From positions 1-60,661 of the IMG/VR virus record IMGVR_UViG_3300021425_002553: a DNA stretch of 60,661 nt; one strand, given 5' to 3'. The position numbers and the translations under genes were made by a program. Under the pieces are notes generated by a model. It did no database searches and was not told the origin of the DNA. It worked only from the letters and a program-made list of their open reading frames with translations. Shown here piece after piece: positions 2,635 to 57,394 of the stretch. Numbering within the stretch: the first letter of the stretch is position 1; each line of letters starts with the position of its first letter. Origin of the DNA: a virus.

Positions 2635-4689
2635 ATGGACGTTTTTAAATATTTGAAGAAGGCTGATGCTTTCCTTGTCGAGAACGATGAATCTCAGGCA
2701 AGGAAAGATGCTGAACGTGCTGGTGGTGTAACGTCAAAGTTCGGTAAGTATTATAATGATAAAGGTCAGTATGTTGGAAAGGTTGTAGGAGATAAATTTC
2801 AAGCAGCATCTAAGGATGAACTTCTTGATAGGATGGCAAAGTCTCCTGCAGGACAGGCTGAACCAAAAACACTTTCACAATTTAAGAAAGAAGTTCCACA
2901 AGAACCTCAAGCGCCTGTTGGTGATCAGATGGGAAGAGTTGTTCCTGGTGGACCATCATCAACAGCTGTTGCTACTGGTGACGTAAAGGGGATTGAAAAA
3001 GGTTTGATGCGTGGTCGTGGGAACGTCATGAGTCCTGCCAGAAAGGCTCAGGTAAAACAACAAGCACGTGATATTCTTGGTCAACTAGCTGCAGAAAGAG
3101 AGGCTGAGGAACGTGCAGCTGCAGAGGCAGAAGCTCAGGCACAAGCAGAATTTAAGACACAACAAGCAGAGATTCAGGCAATAAATGATGCAGAGGCTGA
3201 ACAGATAGATGTTGATGACTACAAAACTCTTGACGATGTTGTAGCAGAAACACAGGATCAGATTGATTATACAAATGATGATGAGGCATTTGATAGTGAA
3301 TATGAGGAGTTTACTAAAGAAGCTGAGACAATGATGAAGACTCTGGCTGATCGTCAGAGAAAGATGATGGAGAAGAAGTTCGCAAGGTTCCAGGAATCTT
3401 TGTCAACTATTCCAAGTGCAACTGATAAGAGATCATTCCTTCAGTCAATGGCACATGCAAAGACGTTTGAAGGTAGAGTGAATGCTGGTGCAGGTAAGAA
3501 CAATCTTGGATATGCTGATGTTCAAAACCTCATTGCAAACCGTGACCGTTTATTGGAGGGATATGGTGATGGATCTCCAGAGCAGATCAAAAAGTTTGTT
3601 GACTCAGTAAGATCTAACAAAGTATCTGATGAGTTTATTGATGCATCCTTTGATATTCTTCCAGATACATTCAAGAAATCCTTGAGTGGTAAGGGTCAGG
3701 TTACTAATGATAAGTATGTGTCAGATGATAAGGCACATAAGGACATGCACTATCTCGGTAGAAACGAAGATGGAACAATAAGACGAGGTGCTGCTAATAA
3801 TAAGGATAGAGCAAAGTTGATGTGGAGAATTTATCTCGAACAGGGTGGTCGTGACGCATACACAGGTCTTCCTCTTGATCTTCAAGCCATGGACTTAGAA
3901 CACGTTCGTGGTTTTAACAATAAAGATGGTGGTGCACCAGGAAAAGAAGAGTGGGAGCAGAGAGAAAATGATGATAATTTCACTCTGATCAACTCTAATA
4001 TCAATCAGAAAAAGGTCGATTTGTCAATGAAGGACTTCTTCGAAAGAGAAGTTGATGTTCATAAAGATAAATCAGAAGAGGATTTTGGTGGTATTGAAAA
4101 ATTATTTGAGAAACAAAACCAAATCGGTGATGTTGGTGATCAACTTGTAAAGACTCTTCTCGGTGAAGGTGGAAAGGGTCTCGGTGACGGAGTAACTAGA
4201 GAGATTCTTCAAATGCACTTTGGTGAGGATGATGGTAGGTATACAAACCTGAGAAATGAATTCCGTAAAGTGGCAACAGACCCTAAGGATAAGAAGAAAG
4301 CAGCTGGCATGAAGTCGAAACTTGGTAAACAATTACTTAAAGCAACAGGATTGAGTAGAGGTATTACTGATAAATCAGGTAGAAGAACAGTTGCACTTCA
4401 AGAAAATGTCTATCGTGGGTTCTTACAGTCCATGGCTAATGCAGAACCAGGTGATAGGCAGAGATACATGGATGGTTGGGCAGAAGCAATTGCTGCAGGA
4501 AACGAAGCAAGAGAACCAAAGGCTGTCAATAAAAAATTAATTGAACTTGGTCTTATCGATCAGGATATTCTTGATGATAAGAAGGCTGGTAAGGTCTTTA
4601 AGGAGGAGTATGAGACAGTCAAAAGAGTGTCCACTTCTTATGGAAAGTCCTTCCTTTCCAAGTATAATAAGAACAACAAGTTCTTCTAA
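2635..4689 (+). CDS. Large virion-associated protein with an HNH endonuclease domain
   Basis: This protein has 684 residues. Residues 30-60 hold a short module (SKFGKYYNDKGQYVGKVVGD) also seen at the N-terminus of the protein at 4717. Residues 140-185 are a long Ala/Glu/Gln-rich helix. Around residues 405-470 an HNH-type site is visible: YTGLPLDL, then the Glu-His pair in MDLEHVRGF, then the Asn in DDNFTLINSNINQKK. This spacing resembles McrA/Cas9-type HNH domains, in which His is the general base. The rest is charged and helical. Its neighbours look like core or internal proteins, so it may be packaged and injected with DNA. The usual zinc-binding cysteine pairs are absent. Confidence 0.65.
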   Translation: MDVFKYLKKADAFLVENDESQARKDAERAGGVTSKFGKYYNDKGQYVGKVVGDKFQAASKDELLDRMAKSPAGQAEPKTLSQFKKEVPQEPQAPVGDQMGRVVPGGPSSTAVATGDVKGIEKGLMRGRGNVMSPARKAQVKQQARDILGQLAAEREAEERAAAEAEAQAQAEFKTQQAEIQAINDAEAEQIDVDDYKTLDDVVAETQDQIDYTNDDEAFDSEYEEFTKEAETMMKTLADRQRKMMEKKFARFQESLSTIPSATDKRSFLQSMAHAKTFEGRVNAGAGKNNLGYADVQNLIANRDRLLEGYGDGSPEQIKKFVDSVRSNKVSDEFIDASFDILPDTFKKSLSGKGQVTNDKYVSDDKAHKDMHYLGRNEDGTIRRGAANNKDRAKLMWRIYLEQGGRDAYTGLPLDLQAMDLEHVRGFNNKDGGAPGKEEWEQRENDDNFTLINSNINQKKVDLSMKDFFEREVDVHKDKSEEDFGGIEKLFEKQNQIGDVGDQLVKTLLGEGGKGLGDGVTREILQMHFGEDDGRYTNLRNEFRKVATDPKDKKKAAGMKSKLGKQLLKATGLSRGITDKSGRRTVALQENVYRGFLQSMANAEPGDRQRYMDGWAEAIAAGNEAREPKAVNKKLIELGLIDQDILDDKKAGKVFKEEYETVKRVSTSYGKSFLSKYNKNNKFF

Positions 4690-7017: not shown

Positions 7018-7045
7018 ATAGGAGACAACTGTCTCCTATTTTTTT
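7018..7045 (+). terminator. Intrinsic terminator
   Basis: ATAGGAGAC, loop AACT, then GTCTCCTAT form a 9-bp stem followed by seven T. It ends the core-protein block, and the next late promoter begins at the end of the T-run. Confidence 0.85.
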
Positions 7046-7052
7046 ATAAATA
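7045..7052 (+). promoter_or_regulatory. T4-type late promoter (perfect consensus)
   Basis: TATAAATA directly abuts the terminator T-run, 36 bp before the start at 7088. Confidence 0.8.
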
Positions 7053-18598: not shown

Positions 18599-18624
18599 CA
18601 TTAGTCACGGATTGACTCTAAAAA
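18595..18624 (+). promoter_or_regulatory. Possible sigma70-like promoter for the structured RNA
   Basis: TTGACA (18595-18600), containing the stop codon of the previous gene, is followed after 18 bp by TAAAAA (18619-18624). The -10 is weak. If used, transcription would begin near 18631 and end at the terminator at 18841, giving a ~210-nt RNA. Confidence 0.35.
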
Positions 18625-18841
18625 TGCCCTGGTCGGTAGAAGGTCCCCTTCTTCCCGCGTTTCTTGGTTCGTAAAATCAAGTGGTGGAGTCACTAGACCC
18701 AACTGAGTTTACTAATTCTCCAAAGATTAGTTGGTGCGGATGGAGGAAACTCCCGCCTGAGATTTAGTTATTACTCAGTGATAAAAATAACTTGGCGTGC
18801 ATGGAGCCCATGAAGGAGGTCTTGACAAAGGCCTCCTTTTT
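18625..18841 (+). ncRNA. Candidate non-coding RNA upstream of the glycan cluster
   Basis: The 278-bp gap between 18598 and 18877 holds no supported frame but many helices: GAAGG/CCTTC 18639-18651, CTTG/CAAG 18663-18681, ACTAAT/ATTAGT 18711-18731, GGAG-GAAA-CTCC 18742-18753 (GNRA tetraloop), CTGAG/CTCAG 18757-18778, CATGG/CCATG 18800-18812, and the terminator hairpin. TGACTC 18613-18618 could also pair with GAGTCA 18687-18692. Cyanophage RNA families such as wcaG and manA are known upstream of sugar genes; I cannot tell whether this is one of them. Confidence 0.5.
18813..18841 (+). terminator. Intrinsic terminator containing a promoter -35 box in its loop
   Basis: AAGGAGGTC, loop TTGACAAA, GGCCTCCTT form a 9-bp stem (one G-T pair) followed by a T-run. 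The loop holds TTGACA, the -35 box of the promoter at 18822. Confidence 0.85.
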
Positions 18842-18850
18842 TCATACAAT
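18822..18850 (+). promoter_or_regulatory. Strong sigma70-like promoter for the glycan cluster
   Basis: TTGACA (18822-18827), exactly 17 bp, TACAAT (18845-18850). The -35 is in the terminator loop and the spacer spans its 3' arm and T-run. The first start codon, 18877, lies about 20 bp after the expected transcript start. Confidence 0.85.
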
Positions 18851-18876
18851 ACATACATATGGTATGATCTTTTATA

Positions 18877-19209
18877 ATGAAGATTGGATTTAATTGTAGT
18901 TCCTTTGACCTGTTTCATGCTGGTCATGTGACGATGTTGAAGATGGAGAAAGAGTTATGTGATTGGTTGATCGTAGCCTTCAGGTTGATCCCACTATCGA
19001 CAGACCTGGTATCAAAAATAAACCAACCCAAAGTGTGTATGAGAGGTATGTACAAGTACAGGGTTGTCGAATATGTCAATGATAGACCAGGACATGATGT
19101 GAGATATTCGACATCAAACAAAAAAATAATGACTGAAATTGATTGGTCACCAAAGACTGACATTGCAACTGGACTCCTCAAAACAATTCTCCATTATGAA
19201 AATCATTAA
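18877..19209 (+). pseudogene. Broken cytidylyltransferase fused to the C-terminus of RmlB
   Basis: The continuous 110-codon frame is a chimera. Residues 1-34 (SSFDLFHAGHVTMLKMEKEL) are the HxGH start of a TagD/glycerol-3-phosphate-cytidylyltransferase-like enzyme. From 18981 to 19079 the cytidylyltransferase continues in the next frame (VDPTIDRPGIKNKPTQSVYE), so one base was lost near 18979-18981. From about 19066 the first frame again makes sense, but as the end of dTDP-glucose 4,6-dehydratase: EYVNDRPGHDVRYSTSNKKI and DWSPKTDIATGLLKT. An intact rmlC follows. The product cannot be a functional enzyme unless the DNA has errors. Confidence 0.75.
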
Positions 19210-53306: not shown

Positions 53307-53328
53307 GACCCTTGACGGGTCTTTTTTT
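53307..53328 (+). terminator. Intrinsic terminator with a -35-like loop
   Basis: GACCC-TTGAC-GGGTC is followed by seven T. The loop is the core of a TTGACG box that fits a TATATT -10 at 53335. Confidence 0.85.
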
Positions 53329-53340
53329 ATGCGTTATATT
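53312..53340 (+). promoter_or_regulatory. Sigma70-like promoter embedded in terminator
   Basis: TTGACG (53312-53317), 17 bp, TATATT (53335-53340). The -35 box is in the terminator loop and the spacer includes the T-run. It would contribute to psbA transcription. Confidence 0.65.
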
Positions 53341-53411: not shown

Positions 53412-53560
53412 CATGGACAGGTCAGGACTTCCTGACCGACCGACTCCCCGTAAACCAAGACCTATAGGGAGTATAAACACGTCTTTCATATCCTCGCTAA
53501 GGGTGCGAGGAAATAGTAACTCCACCATTTCCCTGATGGTCTTACTTTTTGTTCATAACA
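53412..53560 (+). promoter_or_regulatory. Structured 5' leader of psbA
   Basis: This 149-nt leader has three clear hairpins: GGTCAGG-ACTT-CCTGACC (53420-53437), ACTCCC with GGGAGT (53443-53448 and 53467-53472), and CCTCGC-TAAGGGT-GCGAGG (53492-53510). Conserved leader RNAs (PhotoRC-I and PhotoRC-II) are known upstream of psbA in marine cyanobacteria and cyanophages; this may be one. The frame starting at 53413 is judged not to be a gene. Confidence 0.55.
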
Positions 53561-54640
53561 ATGGCACAAACTCTATCAAGACAACAATCACAATCCTCGT
53601 GGGACAATTTCTGCGAGTGGGTAACTTCTACCAATAACCGCCTCTATGTCGGTTGGTTCGGTGTACTGATGATTCCAACTCTGTTGGCAGCAACCATCTG
53701 TTTCGTCGTAGCTTTCGTCGCTGCTCCACCTGTGGACATCGATGGCATCCGTGAACCCGTCGCTGGTTCACTCATGTACGGTAACAACATCATCTCTGGT
53801 GCAGTTGTTCCCTCTTCCAACGCAATTGGACTCCACTTCTATCCCATCTGGGAAGCCGCATCGCTCGACGAGTGGCTGTATAACGGTGGTCCTTTCCAAC
53901 TCGTAGTCTTCCACTTCCTCATTGGCATCTATGCATACATGGGTCGTGAGTGGGAACTCTCTTATCGTCTGGGTATGCGTCCTTGGATCTGTGTTGCTTA
54001 TTCTGCACCTGTTGCAGCAGCATCCGCAGTCTTCCTGGTCTATCCTTTCGGTCAAGGTTCTTTCTCTGACGCAATGCCCCTGGGTATCTCTGGTACGTTT
54101 AACTACATGCTCGTGTTCCAGGCAGAACACAACATCCTGATGCACCCATTCCACATGTTGGGAGTCGCTGGTGTCTTCGGTGGTTCACTGTTCTCCGCAA
54201 TGCACGGCTCACTGGTTACGTCCTCACTGGTTCGTGAAACCACTGAAACCGAGTCCCAGAACTATGGTTACAAGTTCGGTCAAGAAGAAGAGACCTACAA
54301 CATCGTTGCAGCTCATGGCTACTTCGGTCGTCTGATCTTCCAATATGCATCCTTTAACAACAGCAGAAGTCTTCACTTCTTCCTGGCAGCATGGCCTGTT
54401 GTTGGCATCTGGTTCACTGCACTTGGTGTCTCCACCATGGCCTTTAATCTCAATGGATTCAACTTTAACCAGTCGATCATTGACGGTCAGGGTCGTGTCC
54501 TGAACACCTGGGCAGACGTACTCAACCGCGCTGGTCTCGGAATGGAAGTAATGCACGAGCGTAACGCTCACAACTTCCCACTCGACCTGGCAGCTGCTGA
54601 GTCAACTCCTGTTGCACTCACCGCACCTTCGGTTGGTTGA
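53561..54640 (+). CDS. psbA: Photosystem II D1 protein
   Basis: This 359-residue protein is full-length D1. Numbering matches host D1, with Tyr161 (TyrZ), Asp170 and His190 at the oxygen-evolving side, His198 for P680 and His215 for the iron and quinone site. Residue 130 is Glu, as in the high-light type of cyanobacterial D1. The C-terminal 15 residues after Ala344 ([15 protein letters not shown]) are the extension removed by CtpA. It replaces the rapidly damaged host D1 during infection. ATG 53561 is chosen over an upstream in-frame codon at 53549. The base composition looks host-like. Confidence 0.98.
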
Positions 54641-54744
54641 TAACAACTGAGACTCCGTATAAAGAGGCTGAGATCATTCGTGATACTTGGCCTCAACTAT
54701 ACAGACCTTCTAAAAAAAGAATAATCAAGAAGGGGTCCAAGTGA
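54637..54744 (+). CDS. Possible 35-residue basic peptide
   Basis: A frame starting TTG 54637 overlaps the psbA stop and reads [20 protein letters not shown] followed by a Lys-rich end. Its stop lies in the terminator loop. There is no good ribosome binding site, so it is uncertain. Confidence 0.25.
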
Positions 54745-54755
54745 CCCCTTTTTTT
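54732..54755 (+). terminator. Intrinsic terminator after psbA
   Basis: GGGGTC-CAAGT-GACCCC is followed by seven T. Confidence 0.88.
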
Positions 54756-54772
54756 ATTGAGTACAAATACTC

Positions 54773-54806
54773 TTGACCCCTTCTGTAAAGAAGTGTAAAC
54801 TAAATA
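54773..54806 (+). promoter_or_regulatory. psbD promoter region: sigma70-like plus late
   Basis: TTGACC (54773-54778), 17 bp, TAAACT (54796-54801), with a late core CTAAATA (54800-54806) overlapping the -10. psbD starts at 54834. Both early-type and late transcription would share a start region. Confidence 0.65.
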
Positions 54807-54833
54807 TTGAAAGAATTCTAAGAGGTTTTACTT

Positions 54834-55895
54834 TTGGCTTCATCTACACTTTCTATTCCTAAACAGGGAGGAGGTTGGTTCGATGTTCTCGATGACTGGC
54901 TTAAGCGTGATCGGTTTGTGTTTGTCGGTTGGTCTGGCATACTTCTATTTCCGACAGCTTATCTCGCTATTGGCGGGTGGCTTACAGGAACCACCTTCGT
55001 TACCAGTTGGTACACCCATGGCCTTGCGTCTTCATATCTGGAGGGGGCTAACTTTCTTACTGCAGCTGTATCTACTCCAGCTGATGCTATGGGACATTCT
55101 CTTCTACTGTTATGGGGTCCTGAAGCTCAGGGAGATTTCGTCCGCTGGGTCCAACTTGGGGGACTCTGGGCTTTTGTGGCTCTCCACGGTGCATTTGCCC
55201 TTATAGGGTTCATGCTTCGACAGTTTGAACTTGCACGTCTAATCGGTATCCGTCCGTACAATGCGATTGCTTTTTCAGGTCCTATTGCCGTATTCGTTAG
55301 TGTTTTTCTCATCTACCCACTTGGACAATCCAGTTGGTTCTTTGCGCCATCGTTTGGCGTTGCGGCGATCTTTAGATTCCTACTTTTCCTACAAGGTTTC
55401 CACAACTGGACACTCAACCCCTTTCACATGATGGGTGTTGCAGGTATCCTGGGTGGTGCATTGTTAAGTGCTATCCATGGTGTTACAGTGGAGAACACAT
55501 TGTATCAAGATGGTGAACAAGCTAACACGTTTAAAGCGTTCGATTCAACACAAGAAGAAGAAACTTATTCCATGGTTACGGCAAACCGTTTCTGGTCTCA
55601 GATCTTTGGTATTGCTTTCAGCAATAAGCGTTGGCTTCACTTCTTTATGCTTTTCGTTCCTGTCATGGGACTTTGGACAAGTTCTATTGGTATCATCGGT
55701 CTCGCACTCAATCTTCGTGCTTATGATTTTGTGTCTCAGGAGATTAGAGCAGCAGAGGATCCAGAGTTTGAAACGTTCTATACGAAAAACATCCTCCTCA
55801 ATGAAGGACTCCGTGCCTGGTTGGCTCCTGTAGACCAACCACACGAATCATTTGTATTCCCAGAAGAAGTGTTGCCAAGAGGCAACGCACTGTGA
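54834..55895 (+). CDS. psbD: Photosystem II D2 protein
   Basis: This 353-residue protein carries [20 protein letters not shown], the redox Tyr161 in [11 protein letters not shown], His190, and the chlorophyll His198 in [10 protein letters not shown], as in D2. It starts at TTG 54834, an unusual start, with AGAGG about 10 bp upstream; there is no in-frame ATG before the conserved region. It partners with D1 in the photosystem II core. It has its own promoter and terminator, separate from psbA. Confidence 0.97.
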
Positions 55896-55903
55896 TATAA
55901 TAT

Positions 55904-55928
55904 GGGGGTCTTCGGATCCCCTTTTTTT
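55904..55928 (+). terminator. Intrinsic terminator after psbD (UUCG loop)
   Basis: GGGGGTC-TTCG-GATCCCC (one G-T pair) is followed by seven T. Confidence 0.9.
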
Positions 55929-56824: not shown

Positions 56825-56849
56825 ATAAAACCACTTCCACAACTGTCAC

Positions 56850-56876
56850 AGCACTCCTTCACAGGGGTGCTTTTTT
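56850..56876 (+). terminator. Intrinsic terminator with -35 box in loop
   Basis: AGCACTCC-TTCACA-GGGGTGCT (one T-G pair) is followed by a run of T. The whole loop is TTCACA. Confidence 0.85.
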
Positions 56877-56886
56877 ATTGTATAAT
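56858..56886 (+). promoter_or_regulatory. Sigma70-like promoter embedded in terminator
   Basis: TTCACA (56858-56863), 17 bp, TATAAT (56881-56886). The -35 box equals the terminator loop. The next gene starts at 56907, about 14 bp after the expected transcript start. Confidence 0.75.
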
Positions 56887-56906
56887 ACTCTTAGTGTGGA
56901 TTTATT

Positions 56907-57116: not shown

Positions 57117-57346
57117 TGGAACTTATTCAACCTGATGATCCACAATACTTCTCACAGACTTCTGATGGTTTGTATGATCGACATCACTACAAAGTTGTAG
57201 GAAAGAATGGTGATAGTATTGTGGTTGACAATTGGCAAACTACTCATGAGATATGGTGGAATCGAAAGGTATTCCTTTCACATATCGAAGTCCTGGATAT
57301 CAACAATCCACCACACAAGGCTCGTTCACAAAAAGGTTTTGGTTGA
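57116..57346 (+). CDS. Small hypothetical protein
   Basis: This 76-residue protein has several aromatic and His residues (DGLYDRHHYKVVGKNGDSIV, NWQTTHEIWWNRK), like a small beta-barrel. Its TGA stop is embedded in TTGACA. Function unknown. Confidence 0.65.
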   Translation: MELIQPDDPQYFSQTSDGLYDRHHYKVVGKNGDSIVVDNWQTTHEIWWNRKVFLSHIEVLDINNPPHKARSQKGFG

Positions 57347-57371
57347 CACCACCTCATGAAGAGTATATACT
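57343..57371 (+). promoter_or_regulatory. Sigma70-like promoter with embedded stop codon
   Basis: TTGACA (57343-57348), 17 bp, TATACT (57366-57371). The expected start (about 57378) falls inside the terminator hairpin that follows. Confidence 0.75.
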
Positions 57372-57394
57372 GGAGGGGATGACCCTCCTTTTTT
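57372..57394 (+). terminator. Intrinsic terminator overlapping a transcript start
   Basis: GGAGGG-GATGA-CCCTCC is followed by six T. RNA started from the promoter at 57343 would lack most of the 5' arm, so only upstream transcripts should be ended here. Confidence 0.8.

What the first reader, a model, noticed from the sequence alone, without database searches (positions are those of the whole stretch)
18813..18850. A promoter whose -35 box is the loop of the preceding terminator
Seen: a 9-bp terminator stem (AAGGAGGTC/GGCCTCCTT) has the loop TTGACAAA. TTGACA in that loop is exactly 17 bp from TACAAT, which follows the T-run. The same geometry recurs at 53307-53340 (TTGACG/TATATT) and 56850-56886 (TTCACA/TATAAT). 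Inference: this is a compact 'stop-and-restart' module that ends one transcript and starts the next in about 40 bp. Here it separates a structured RNA from the 15-kb glycan cluster. RNA folding during termination could also expose or block the -35 box. I do not know of a description of this as a recurring device in cyanophages.
Basis: partly seen in the sequence, partly recalled or inferred. Interest (0 to 1): 0.82.

Follow-up and report, generated by a model that had tools for sequence, protein, structure and literature searches.

The report
Cyanophage promoters nested in terminator loops
In T4-like viruses of ocean cyanobacteria, a short DNA cassette that should stop one RNA has the first half of the next start signal built into its hairpin loop; it recurs far more often than chance and moves between genes, which suggests a ready-made punctuation mark for swapping genes in and out.

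Summary
At 18812-18850 a strong intrinsic terminator carries TTGACA in its loop, exactly 17 bp before TACAAT.

It is not chance. In 2.4 Mb of cyanophage contigs, 38 of 363 non-redundant terminators have this nesting. Controls give 1.3 (shuffled), 6.3 (downstream swapped) and 10.3 (loops swapped). Choosing sites only by an exact TATAAT after the T-run returns TTGACA as consensus at 17 bp and at no other spacing. Stem length and gap compensate (rho -0.68).

The device is nearly confined to cyanophages: 31/118 viral versus 0/112 bacterial strong promoters with a T-run in the spacer, and 28 of 32 viral cases lie on T4-like cyanophage contigs.

The window's module belongs to the downstream tagD gene, not to the wcaG RNA upstream. 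A second module family sits in at least 9 mutually unrelated gene contexts.

Best reading: a mobile composite terminator/sigma-70 promoter. It is like the PeSL cassettes of T4-type phages, but in a nested geometry that RB49 does not use. A second geometry, with the -10 box abutting the hairpin's 5' arm, also recurs.

Termination, start sites and any stop-and-restart coupling are untested.

The parts
18600..18695 (+). Second, degenerate wcaG-like RNA element (sub-threshold), in tandem with the next
   Evidence: Rfam RF01761 34.3 bits, gathering score 42, E 6e-5; conserved in about 25 loci
18703..18806 (+). wcaG structured RNA (the 'structured RNA' of the finding)
   Evidence: Rfam RF01761 62.1 bits, gathering score 42
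18812..18842 (+). Intrinsic terminator: hairpin 18812-18839 plus T-run 18837-18842
   Evidence: -18.3 kcal/mol, z -4.2; scan
18822..18827 (+). -35 box TTGACA, GACA forming the hairpin loop
   Evidence: sequence; conserved with changing stems upstream of tagD
18845..18850 (+). -10 box TACAAT, 17 bp after the -35 box; predicted start near 18857
   Evidence: sequence; start position inferred
18877..19209 (+). First ORF downstream: remnant of a tagD-like cytidylyltransferase (frameshifted) joined to the C-terminal part of a nucleotide-sugar dehydratase/epimerase
   Evidence: PHROG hits at residues 1-35 and 58-109; intact tagD in relatives
53307..53340 (+). Second nested module: gacccTTGACgggtc + T7, TTGACG-17-TATATT, upstream of PhotoRC-II (53433-53524) and psbA (53549-54640)
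   Evidence: weak 5-bp stem
56829..56888 (+). Third nested module, member of a dispersed cassette family (about 60 bp): ACCACTTCC..CACTCCTTcACAGGGGTGCTTTTTTATTGTATAATA; TTCACA 56858-56863, TATAAT 56881-56886
55872..55928 (+). Abutting-type module after psbD: TTGCCA 55872-55877, 18 bp, extended -10 TGATATAAT 55893-55901, hairpin 55904-55921, T-run 55922-55928
57343..57394 (+). Abutting-type module: TTGACA 57343-57348, 17 bp, TATACT 57366-57371, hairpin 57372-57388, T-run

Best explanation
The feature is a composite regulatory cassette in which an intrinsic terminator and a host-type sigma-70 promoter share the same about 40 bp of DNA. Read as RNA by a polymerase arriving from upstream, the inverted repeat and U-tract stop transcription. 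Read as duplex DNA by host RNA polymerase, the loop sequence is the -35 box; the 3' arm plus T-run is the 17-bp spacer, and the -10 box follows. The new transcript therefore starts just after the terminator and never contains it. The cassette keeps neighbouring transcription units separate in a compact genome and travels as a unit, so a gene swapped in beside it comes with a stop and a start (as PeSLs do in T4-type phages). Shown here by sequence statistics: the nesting, the 17-bp constraint, conservation with changing stems, enrichment in cyanophages, dispersal to unrelated contexts. Inferred: that it terminates and initiates in infected cells; that polymerase released at the T-run may be handed to the overlapping promoter, or that an arriving polymerase briefly occludes it; that recombination between copies moves genes.
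For: Controls, 38 observed of 363: shuffled 1.3 +/- 1.1, downstream swapped 6.3 +/- 2.4 (max 15), loops swapped 10.3 +/- 2.9 (max 18). Exact TTGACA at the loop ranks first of 180 anagrams, 20 versus 4 for the next. Selected only on exact TATAAT 2-13 nt after the terminator (n=35), the hexamer 17 bp upstream has consensus TTGACA; at 15, 16, 18 or 19 bp it does not. Arm length and gap compensate, rho -0.68, p 1e-6. 77 of 82 tagD-like genes are preceded by a terminator/promoter composite with at least four unrelated stems; the 5 without a terminator lie directly behind another reading frame. Nested in 31/118 viral versus 0/112 bacterial strong promoters with a T-run in the spacer, flank-swap null 1.7; 28 of 32 viral cases on T4-like cyanophage contigs. 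One cassette family in 9 mutually unrelated contexts, flanks at 25% identity, two copies in one contig. Where the gene before site 3 is followed by a terminator, 17 of 19 are interleaved with a promoter. Reinitiation by polymerase retained on DNA after intrinsic termination is known in vitro (PMC6978380).
Against: No transcript 5' or 3' ends, no reporter data, no termination assay. About a third of the tagD composites have a poor -35 (TTGCAT, TTGTAT), so some may rely on the -10 alone. In 8 reference cyanophages the nested form is uncommon (0-2 per genome, about 1.4% of strong promoters). Site 2 has a weak stem and a competing promoter downstream. Dispersal was shown for the site-3 cassette family; for the main module only neighbour changes were seen.
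Confidence: 0.76

Rival explanations
1. Economy of space only: a promoter and a terminator happen to overlap because intergenic gaps are short, with no selection for the nested geometry.
For: Intergenic gaps are short; strong promoters and terminators are both common; the 3' arm plus T-run is naturally about 15-17 bp long.
Against: Promoter positions relative to terminators are not spread: the two peaks are -35 in the loop and -10 abutting the 5' arm. Stem length and gap compensate. Bacterial strong promoters with a T-run in the spacer show none (0/112); RB49, equally compact, uses tandem rather than nested order.
Confidence: 0.12
2. The terminator is the expression platform of the wcaG RNA (transcription attenuation of the glycan cluster), and the promoter-like boxes are a bypass or incidental.
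For: wcaG is annotated as cis-regulatory and linked to exopolysaccharide genes (PMC2864571). In the window and in S-H68 a terminator follows wcaG within about 15 nt.
Against: The same terminator/promoter sequence precedes tagD in loci with no wcaG, and in S-H68, S-B43 and S-B05 a whole 2OG-oxygenase gene lies between wcaG (with its own terminator) and the module.
Confidence: 0.08
3. The hairpin is not a terminator but a DNA or RNA structure for another role (operator dyad, recombination site), with the promoter as its real function.
For: Inverted repeats can be operators; the cassette behaves like a recombination hot spot; RB49 promoters carry hairpins in their spacer without a T-run.
Against: G+C-rich stem, short loop and uninterrupted T-run are the hallmarks of intrinsic terminators. 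Stem sequences vary freely while complementarity is kept, unlike an operator.
Confidence: 0.05

Closest known systems
PeSLs (promoter early stem-loops) of T4-type phages RB49/phi1 and others (Arbiol 2010, Comeau 2014)
   Same: Small intergenic composites of a strong sigma-70-like promoter and a stem-loop terminator, repeated in the genome and proposed to mediate modular shuffling.
   Different: In RB49, examined here, terminators have GAAA/TTCG-type loops and the -35 box lies 14-17 nt after the stem (6 of 27 terminators), and many promoters have a hairpin inside the spacer without a T-run; none has the -35 box in a terminator loop. The two PeSL papers were not in the library; their content is from memory and from citing papers.
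Post-termination recycling and reinitiation of RNA polymerase (Kang 2020, PMC6978380; PMC6978322)
   Same: A promoter near an intrinsic terminator can be used by polymerase that stays on the DNA after RNA release.
   Different: Shown in vitro on templates where terminator and promoter are separate; overlapping elements in a phage were not described in the text read.
wcaG RNA motif (RF01761)
   Same: Present directly upstream in the window; marine cyanophage element near exopolysaccharide genes.
   Different: The nested module occurs without it.

Membership tests
PeSL (T4-type mobile regulatory cassette) | strong sigma-70-like promoter combined with a stem-loop terminator in one short intergenic element | tested here: met
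   (sequence level only)
PeSL (T4-type mobile regulatory cassette) | repeated copies with different neighbours, i.e. shuffling points | tested here: met
   site-3 family in 9 unrelated contexts; tagD module with changed upstream and downstream neighbours
PeSL (T4-type mobile regulatory cassette) | element order as in RB49 (terminator, then complete promoter; or hairpin in the spacer) | tested here: not met
   nested in cyanophages; tandem or spacer-hairpin in RB49
PeSL (T4-type mobile regulatory cassette) | located in hyperplastic, gene-swapping regions | tested here: inconclusive
   glycan and photosynthesis gene surroundings; no genome-wide mapping of hyperplastic regions was done
PeSL (T4-type mobile regulatory cassette) | stem-loop is an effective terminator and the promoter is active early | not testable with these tools
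   needs infection transcriptomics or reporters
wcaG-controlled attenuator (riboswitch-like) | terminator depends on, and co-occurs with, the upstream wcaG RNA | tested here: not met
   module kept where wcaG is absent or separated by a gene

The most novel reading that the evidence does not exclude
T4-like cyanophages have evolved one-way transcription boundaries by weaving a terminator into a sigma-70 promoter in two reciprocal ways. In the first the -35 box is the hairpin loop. In the second an often extended -10 box abuts the 5' arm, so the new RNA starts inside the arm and cannot form the full hairpin. Either way the terminator acts only on incoming transcripts and not on the one it starts, and the cassettes are exchanged as units, each swapped gene arriving with its own stop and start; polymerase released at the T-run may be handed directly to the overlapping promoter.
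Probability: 0.42. Interest if true: 0.76.

Novelty: new variant of a known kind. Interest (0 to 1): 0.63.

Why it matters
It gives T4-like cyanophages a defined, searchable punctuation element that joins two signals usually drawn apart, and explains how metabolic genes can be exchanged without leaving them silent or running on into neighbours. It makes polymerase handover after termination testable in a natural setting, since here terminator and promoter overlap. Gene finders and promoter predictors that treat the two signals separately will miss or misplace it. It is also a roughly 40-bp natural terminator-promoter design of use in cyanobacterial genetics.

Tried and rejected
Chance overlap: rejected by anagram, swap, shuffle and position controls. 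wcaG attenuator: rejected as the main role because the module persists without wcaG. RNA hairpin masking the -35 box: not adopted, since the box is read in duplex DNA. A novel structured RNA at 18600-18695: first suspected from covarying hairpins, then identified as a second, sub-threshold wcaG copy. Enteric T4-like phages as carriers of the nested form: none in T4 or RB49, nor in the 198 kb of KVP40 examined. One search crashed and was repeated; one search missed loci below L100 through a naming slip and is replaced. The genome search 'relatives' is not available for a virus record. The PeSL papers are not held. The masked 'other phages' figure (0/141) is a weak control because exact hits were masked there; searches are the better comparison. 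One search's upstream groups are single-linkage and lump several contexts, so the mutual-identity count is used instead.

Full report
Observation. The window is part of a T4-like cyanophage genome: relatives by DNA are Synechococcus phages S-H68, S-B43, S-B05, RN05-S and RB11-B, of the Kyanoviridae where the taxonomy was read. At 18812-18842 there is a strong intrinsic terminator (12-bp hairpin in the minimum-energy fold, -18.3 kcal/mol, z -4.2). Its loop region is TTGACA (18822-18827), and TACAAT (18845-18850) follows at exactly 17 bp. Of 11 forward terminator candidates in the window, these three have at most 2 mismatches over both boxes; the others have 3-6.

Is it more than chance? I scanned terminators in 2.4 Mb of contigs fetched by three marker proteins (tagD-like, RimK-like, PsbA), not by the motif, plus the window itself, and collapsed near copies to 363. 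38 have a -35 box (at most 1 mismatch) at the loop and a -10 box (at most 1 mismatch) 16-18 bp on; the spacing is 17 in 34. Swapping downstream sequences between terminators gives 6.3 +/- 2.4, swapping loops of equal length 10.3 +/- 2.9, shuffling loop and downstream letters 1.3 +/- 1.1. Exact TTGACA at the loop occurs 20 times in a slightly larger set; the next best of 180 anagrams reaches 4. The two swap controls keep genuine boxes in circulation, so they overstate chance.

Two tests do not select on the -35 box. First, terminators followed 2-13 nt later by an exact TATAAT (35) were taken and the hexamer at each spacing read: at 17 bp the consensus is TTGACA with T, T and G in 28, 27 and 24 of 35, and at 15, 16, 18 and 19 bp it is not. 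Second, among 40 such sites the length of the 3' arm and the gap from stem to TATAAT compensate each other (rho -0.68, p 1e-6), so that the loop stays a fixed distance from the -10 box. That is the signature of a constraint on the nested geometry rather than of two signals that merely sit close together.

Who has it? Among promoters TTGACA-(16-18)-TATAAT with a T5 run in the spacer, 31 of 118 from IMG/VR are nested in a terminator against 0 of 112 from bacterial genomes (Fisher p 1e-10); swapping the 5' flanks gives 1.7 expected. Of 32 viral nested cases, 28 lie on contigs whose proteins are nearest to T4-like cyanophages (28 of 61 such loci against 4 of 59 others, p 9e-7). T4 has none of 21 terminators in this form and RB49 none of 27; in RB49, 6 terminators are followed by a complete promoter 14-17 nt downstream, and many of its promoters carry a hairpin inside the spacer without a T-run. 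In eight reference cyanophages the nested form is present but uncommon (about 1.4% of strong promoters, against 8.4% in the IMG/VR set), so the window is unusually rich.

What does it belong to? The RNA upstream is wcaG (18703-18806), with a second, degenerate wcaG copy in front (18600-18695, 34.3 bits, below the gathering score). A terminator right after a regulatory RNA suggests attenuation, but the module follows the downstream gene. In 46 contigs found by the module's core sequence it precedes a tagD-like cytidylyltransferase, with at least three upstream arrangements: full wcaG, a short stub of its 3' end, or no wcaG at all. In S-H68, S-B43 and S-B05 a whole 2OG-oxygenase gene, with its own terminator after wcaG, lies between. 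In S-B05 the sequence downstream of the module is replaced by other genes about 10 nt into tagD. Among 82 tagD genes, most of them found by protein search, 77 have a terminator/promoter composite; the stems fall into at least four unrelated sequences, while the TTG of the loop, the distance and the -10 box persist in most. In about a third of them the -35 is poor (TTGCAT, TTGTAT), a limit on the claim.

Mobility. The site-3 module is one member of a cassette of about 60 bp (ACCACTTCC..AACNGTCNCACCACTCCTTGACAGGGGTGGTTTTTTATTGTATAATA). It was found in 9 mutually unrelated contexts, with flank identity at the 25% background beyond its edges, and twice in one contig 1.4 kb apart. After the RimK-like gene that precedes site 3, 72 loci show 53 with no terminator, 9 nested, 8 abutting and 2 plain terminators: where a terminator exists it almost always comes with a promoter. 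T4-type phages are said to recombine on about 50 bp of homology (PMC4177764), so such cassettes could serve as exchange points (inference).

A second geometry. The position profile shows only one other peak: promoters whose -10 box abuts the 5' arm of the terminator. 65 of 363 terminators have TATAAT (at most 1 mismatch) within 3 nt of the arm; the exact box occurs 17 times against 9 for the next anagram; 38 of the 65 carry the TG of an extended -10, against an 8% background. The match at 1 mismatch alone is not above its anagrams (65 against 64), so the exact match and the TG are the evidence. The predicted start falls inside the arm, so the new RNA would lack most of the 5' strand of the stem. 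The window has two: after psbD (55872-55928) and at 57343-57394. S-PM2, Syn9 and S-RSM4 carry the TGATATAAT/TGATATACT form.

Mechanism. From upstream, polymerase makes the hairpin and U-tract and should release near 18842. From the DNA, host RNA polymerase with its main sigma factor can bind TTGACA-17-TACAAT and start near 18857, 20 nt before the ATG at 18877. Cyanomyoviruses lack the T4 factors that redirect host polymerase, and their early genes are thought to use unmodified host polymerase (PMC2984593). RNA folding cannot hide a box read in duplex DNA; what can couple the events is polymerase itself, either by occluding the promoter while it pauses at the T-run or by being handed over after RNA release, as seen in vitro (PMC6978380). 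Which of the two holds is untested.

Known or new. Composite promoter-terminator cassettes that shuffle genes are known as PeSLs. The papers were not available here and are cited from memory and from citing papers; the S-PM2 paper notes far fewer in that cyanophage. By the features tested this is a relative in kind, with a geometry not seen in RB49: a new variant of a known kind. No held paper describing a -35 box in a terminator loop was found; that is absence in one library, not proof.

Noticed in passing
18600-18695: A second, degenerate wcaG copy directly in front of the annotated one (tandem wcaG); also in about 25 related loci and in part in S-PM2, with covarying hairpins.
   Followed up: partly
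18877-19209: The first gene of the glycan cluster is a remnant: the tagD-like start is frameshifted and joined to the C-terminal part of a nucleotide-sugar dehydratase, so tagD and most of the next gene are missing here though intact in relatives; deletion or assembly error not resolved.
   Followed up: partly
55872-55928 and 57343-57394: Second interleaved geometry: -10 box abutting the 5' arm of a terminator, often extended TGnTATAAT, with the ATG shortly after the T-run.
   Followed up: partly
18842-18867: Inverted repeat TCATACAATA/TATGGTATGA spanning the -10 box and predicted start; dyads also seen there in other tagD modules; possible operator.
   Followed up: no
7018-7047: Terminator whose T-run runs straight into TATAAATA, the T4-type late promoter motif; a late-promoter counterpart of the same packing.
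   Followed up: no
L002 3213-3260 (S-H68): The deposited start of QBP05876.1 lies inside the terminator that follows wcaG; the likely start is the ATG near 3249.
   Followed up: no
L395, L606-L611 (RB49): About ten RB49 promoters have a 6-7 bp inverted repeat filling the spacer (TTGACAggggatcggtgatccccTATAAT) without a T-run.
   Followed up: no
53549-55895: psbA (D1) and psbD (D2) lie side by side, with PhotoRC-II RNA in front of psbA.
   Followed up: no
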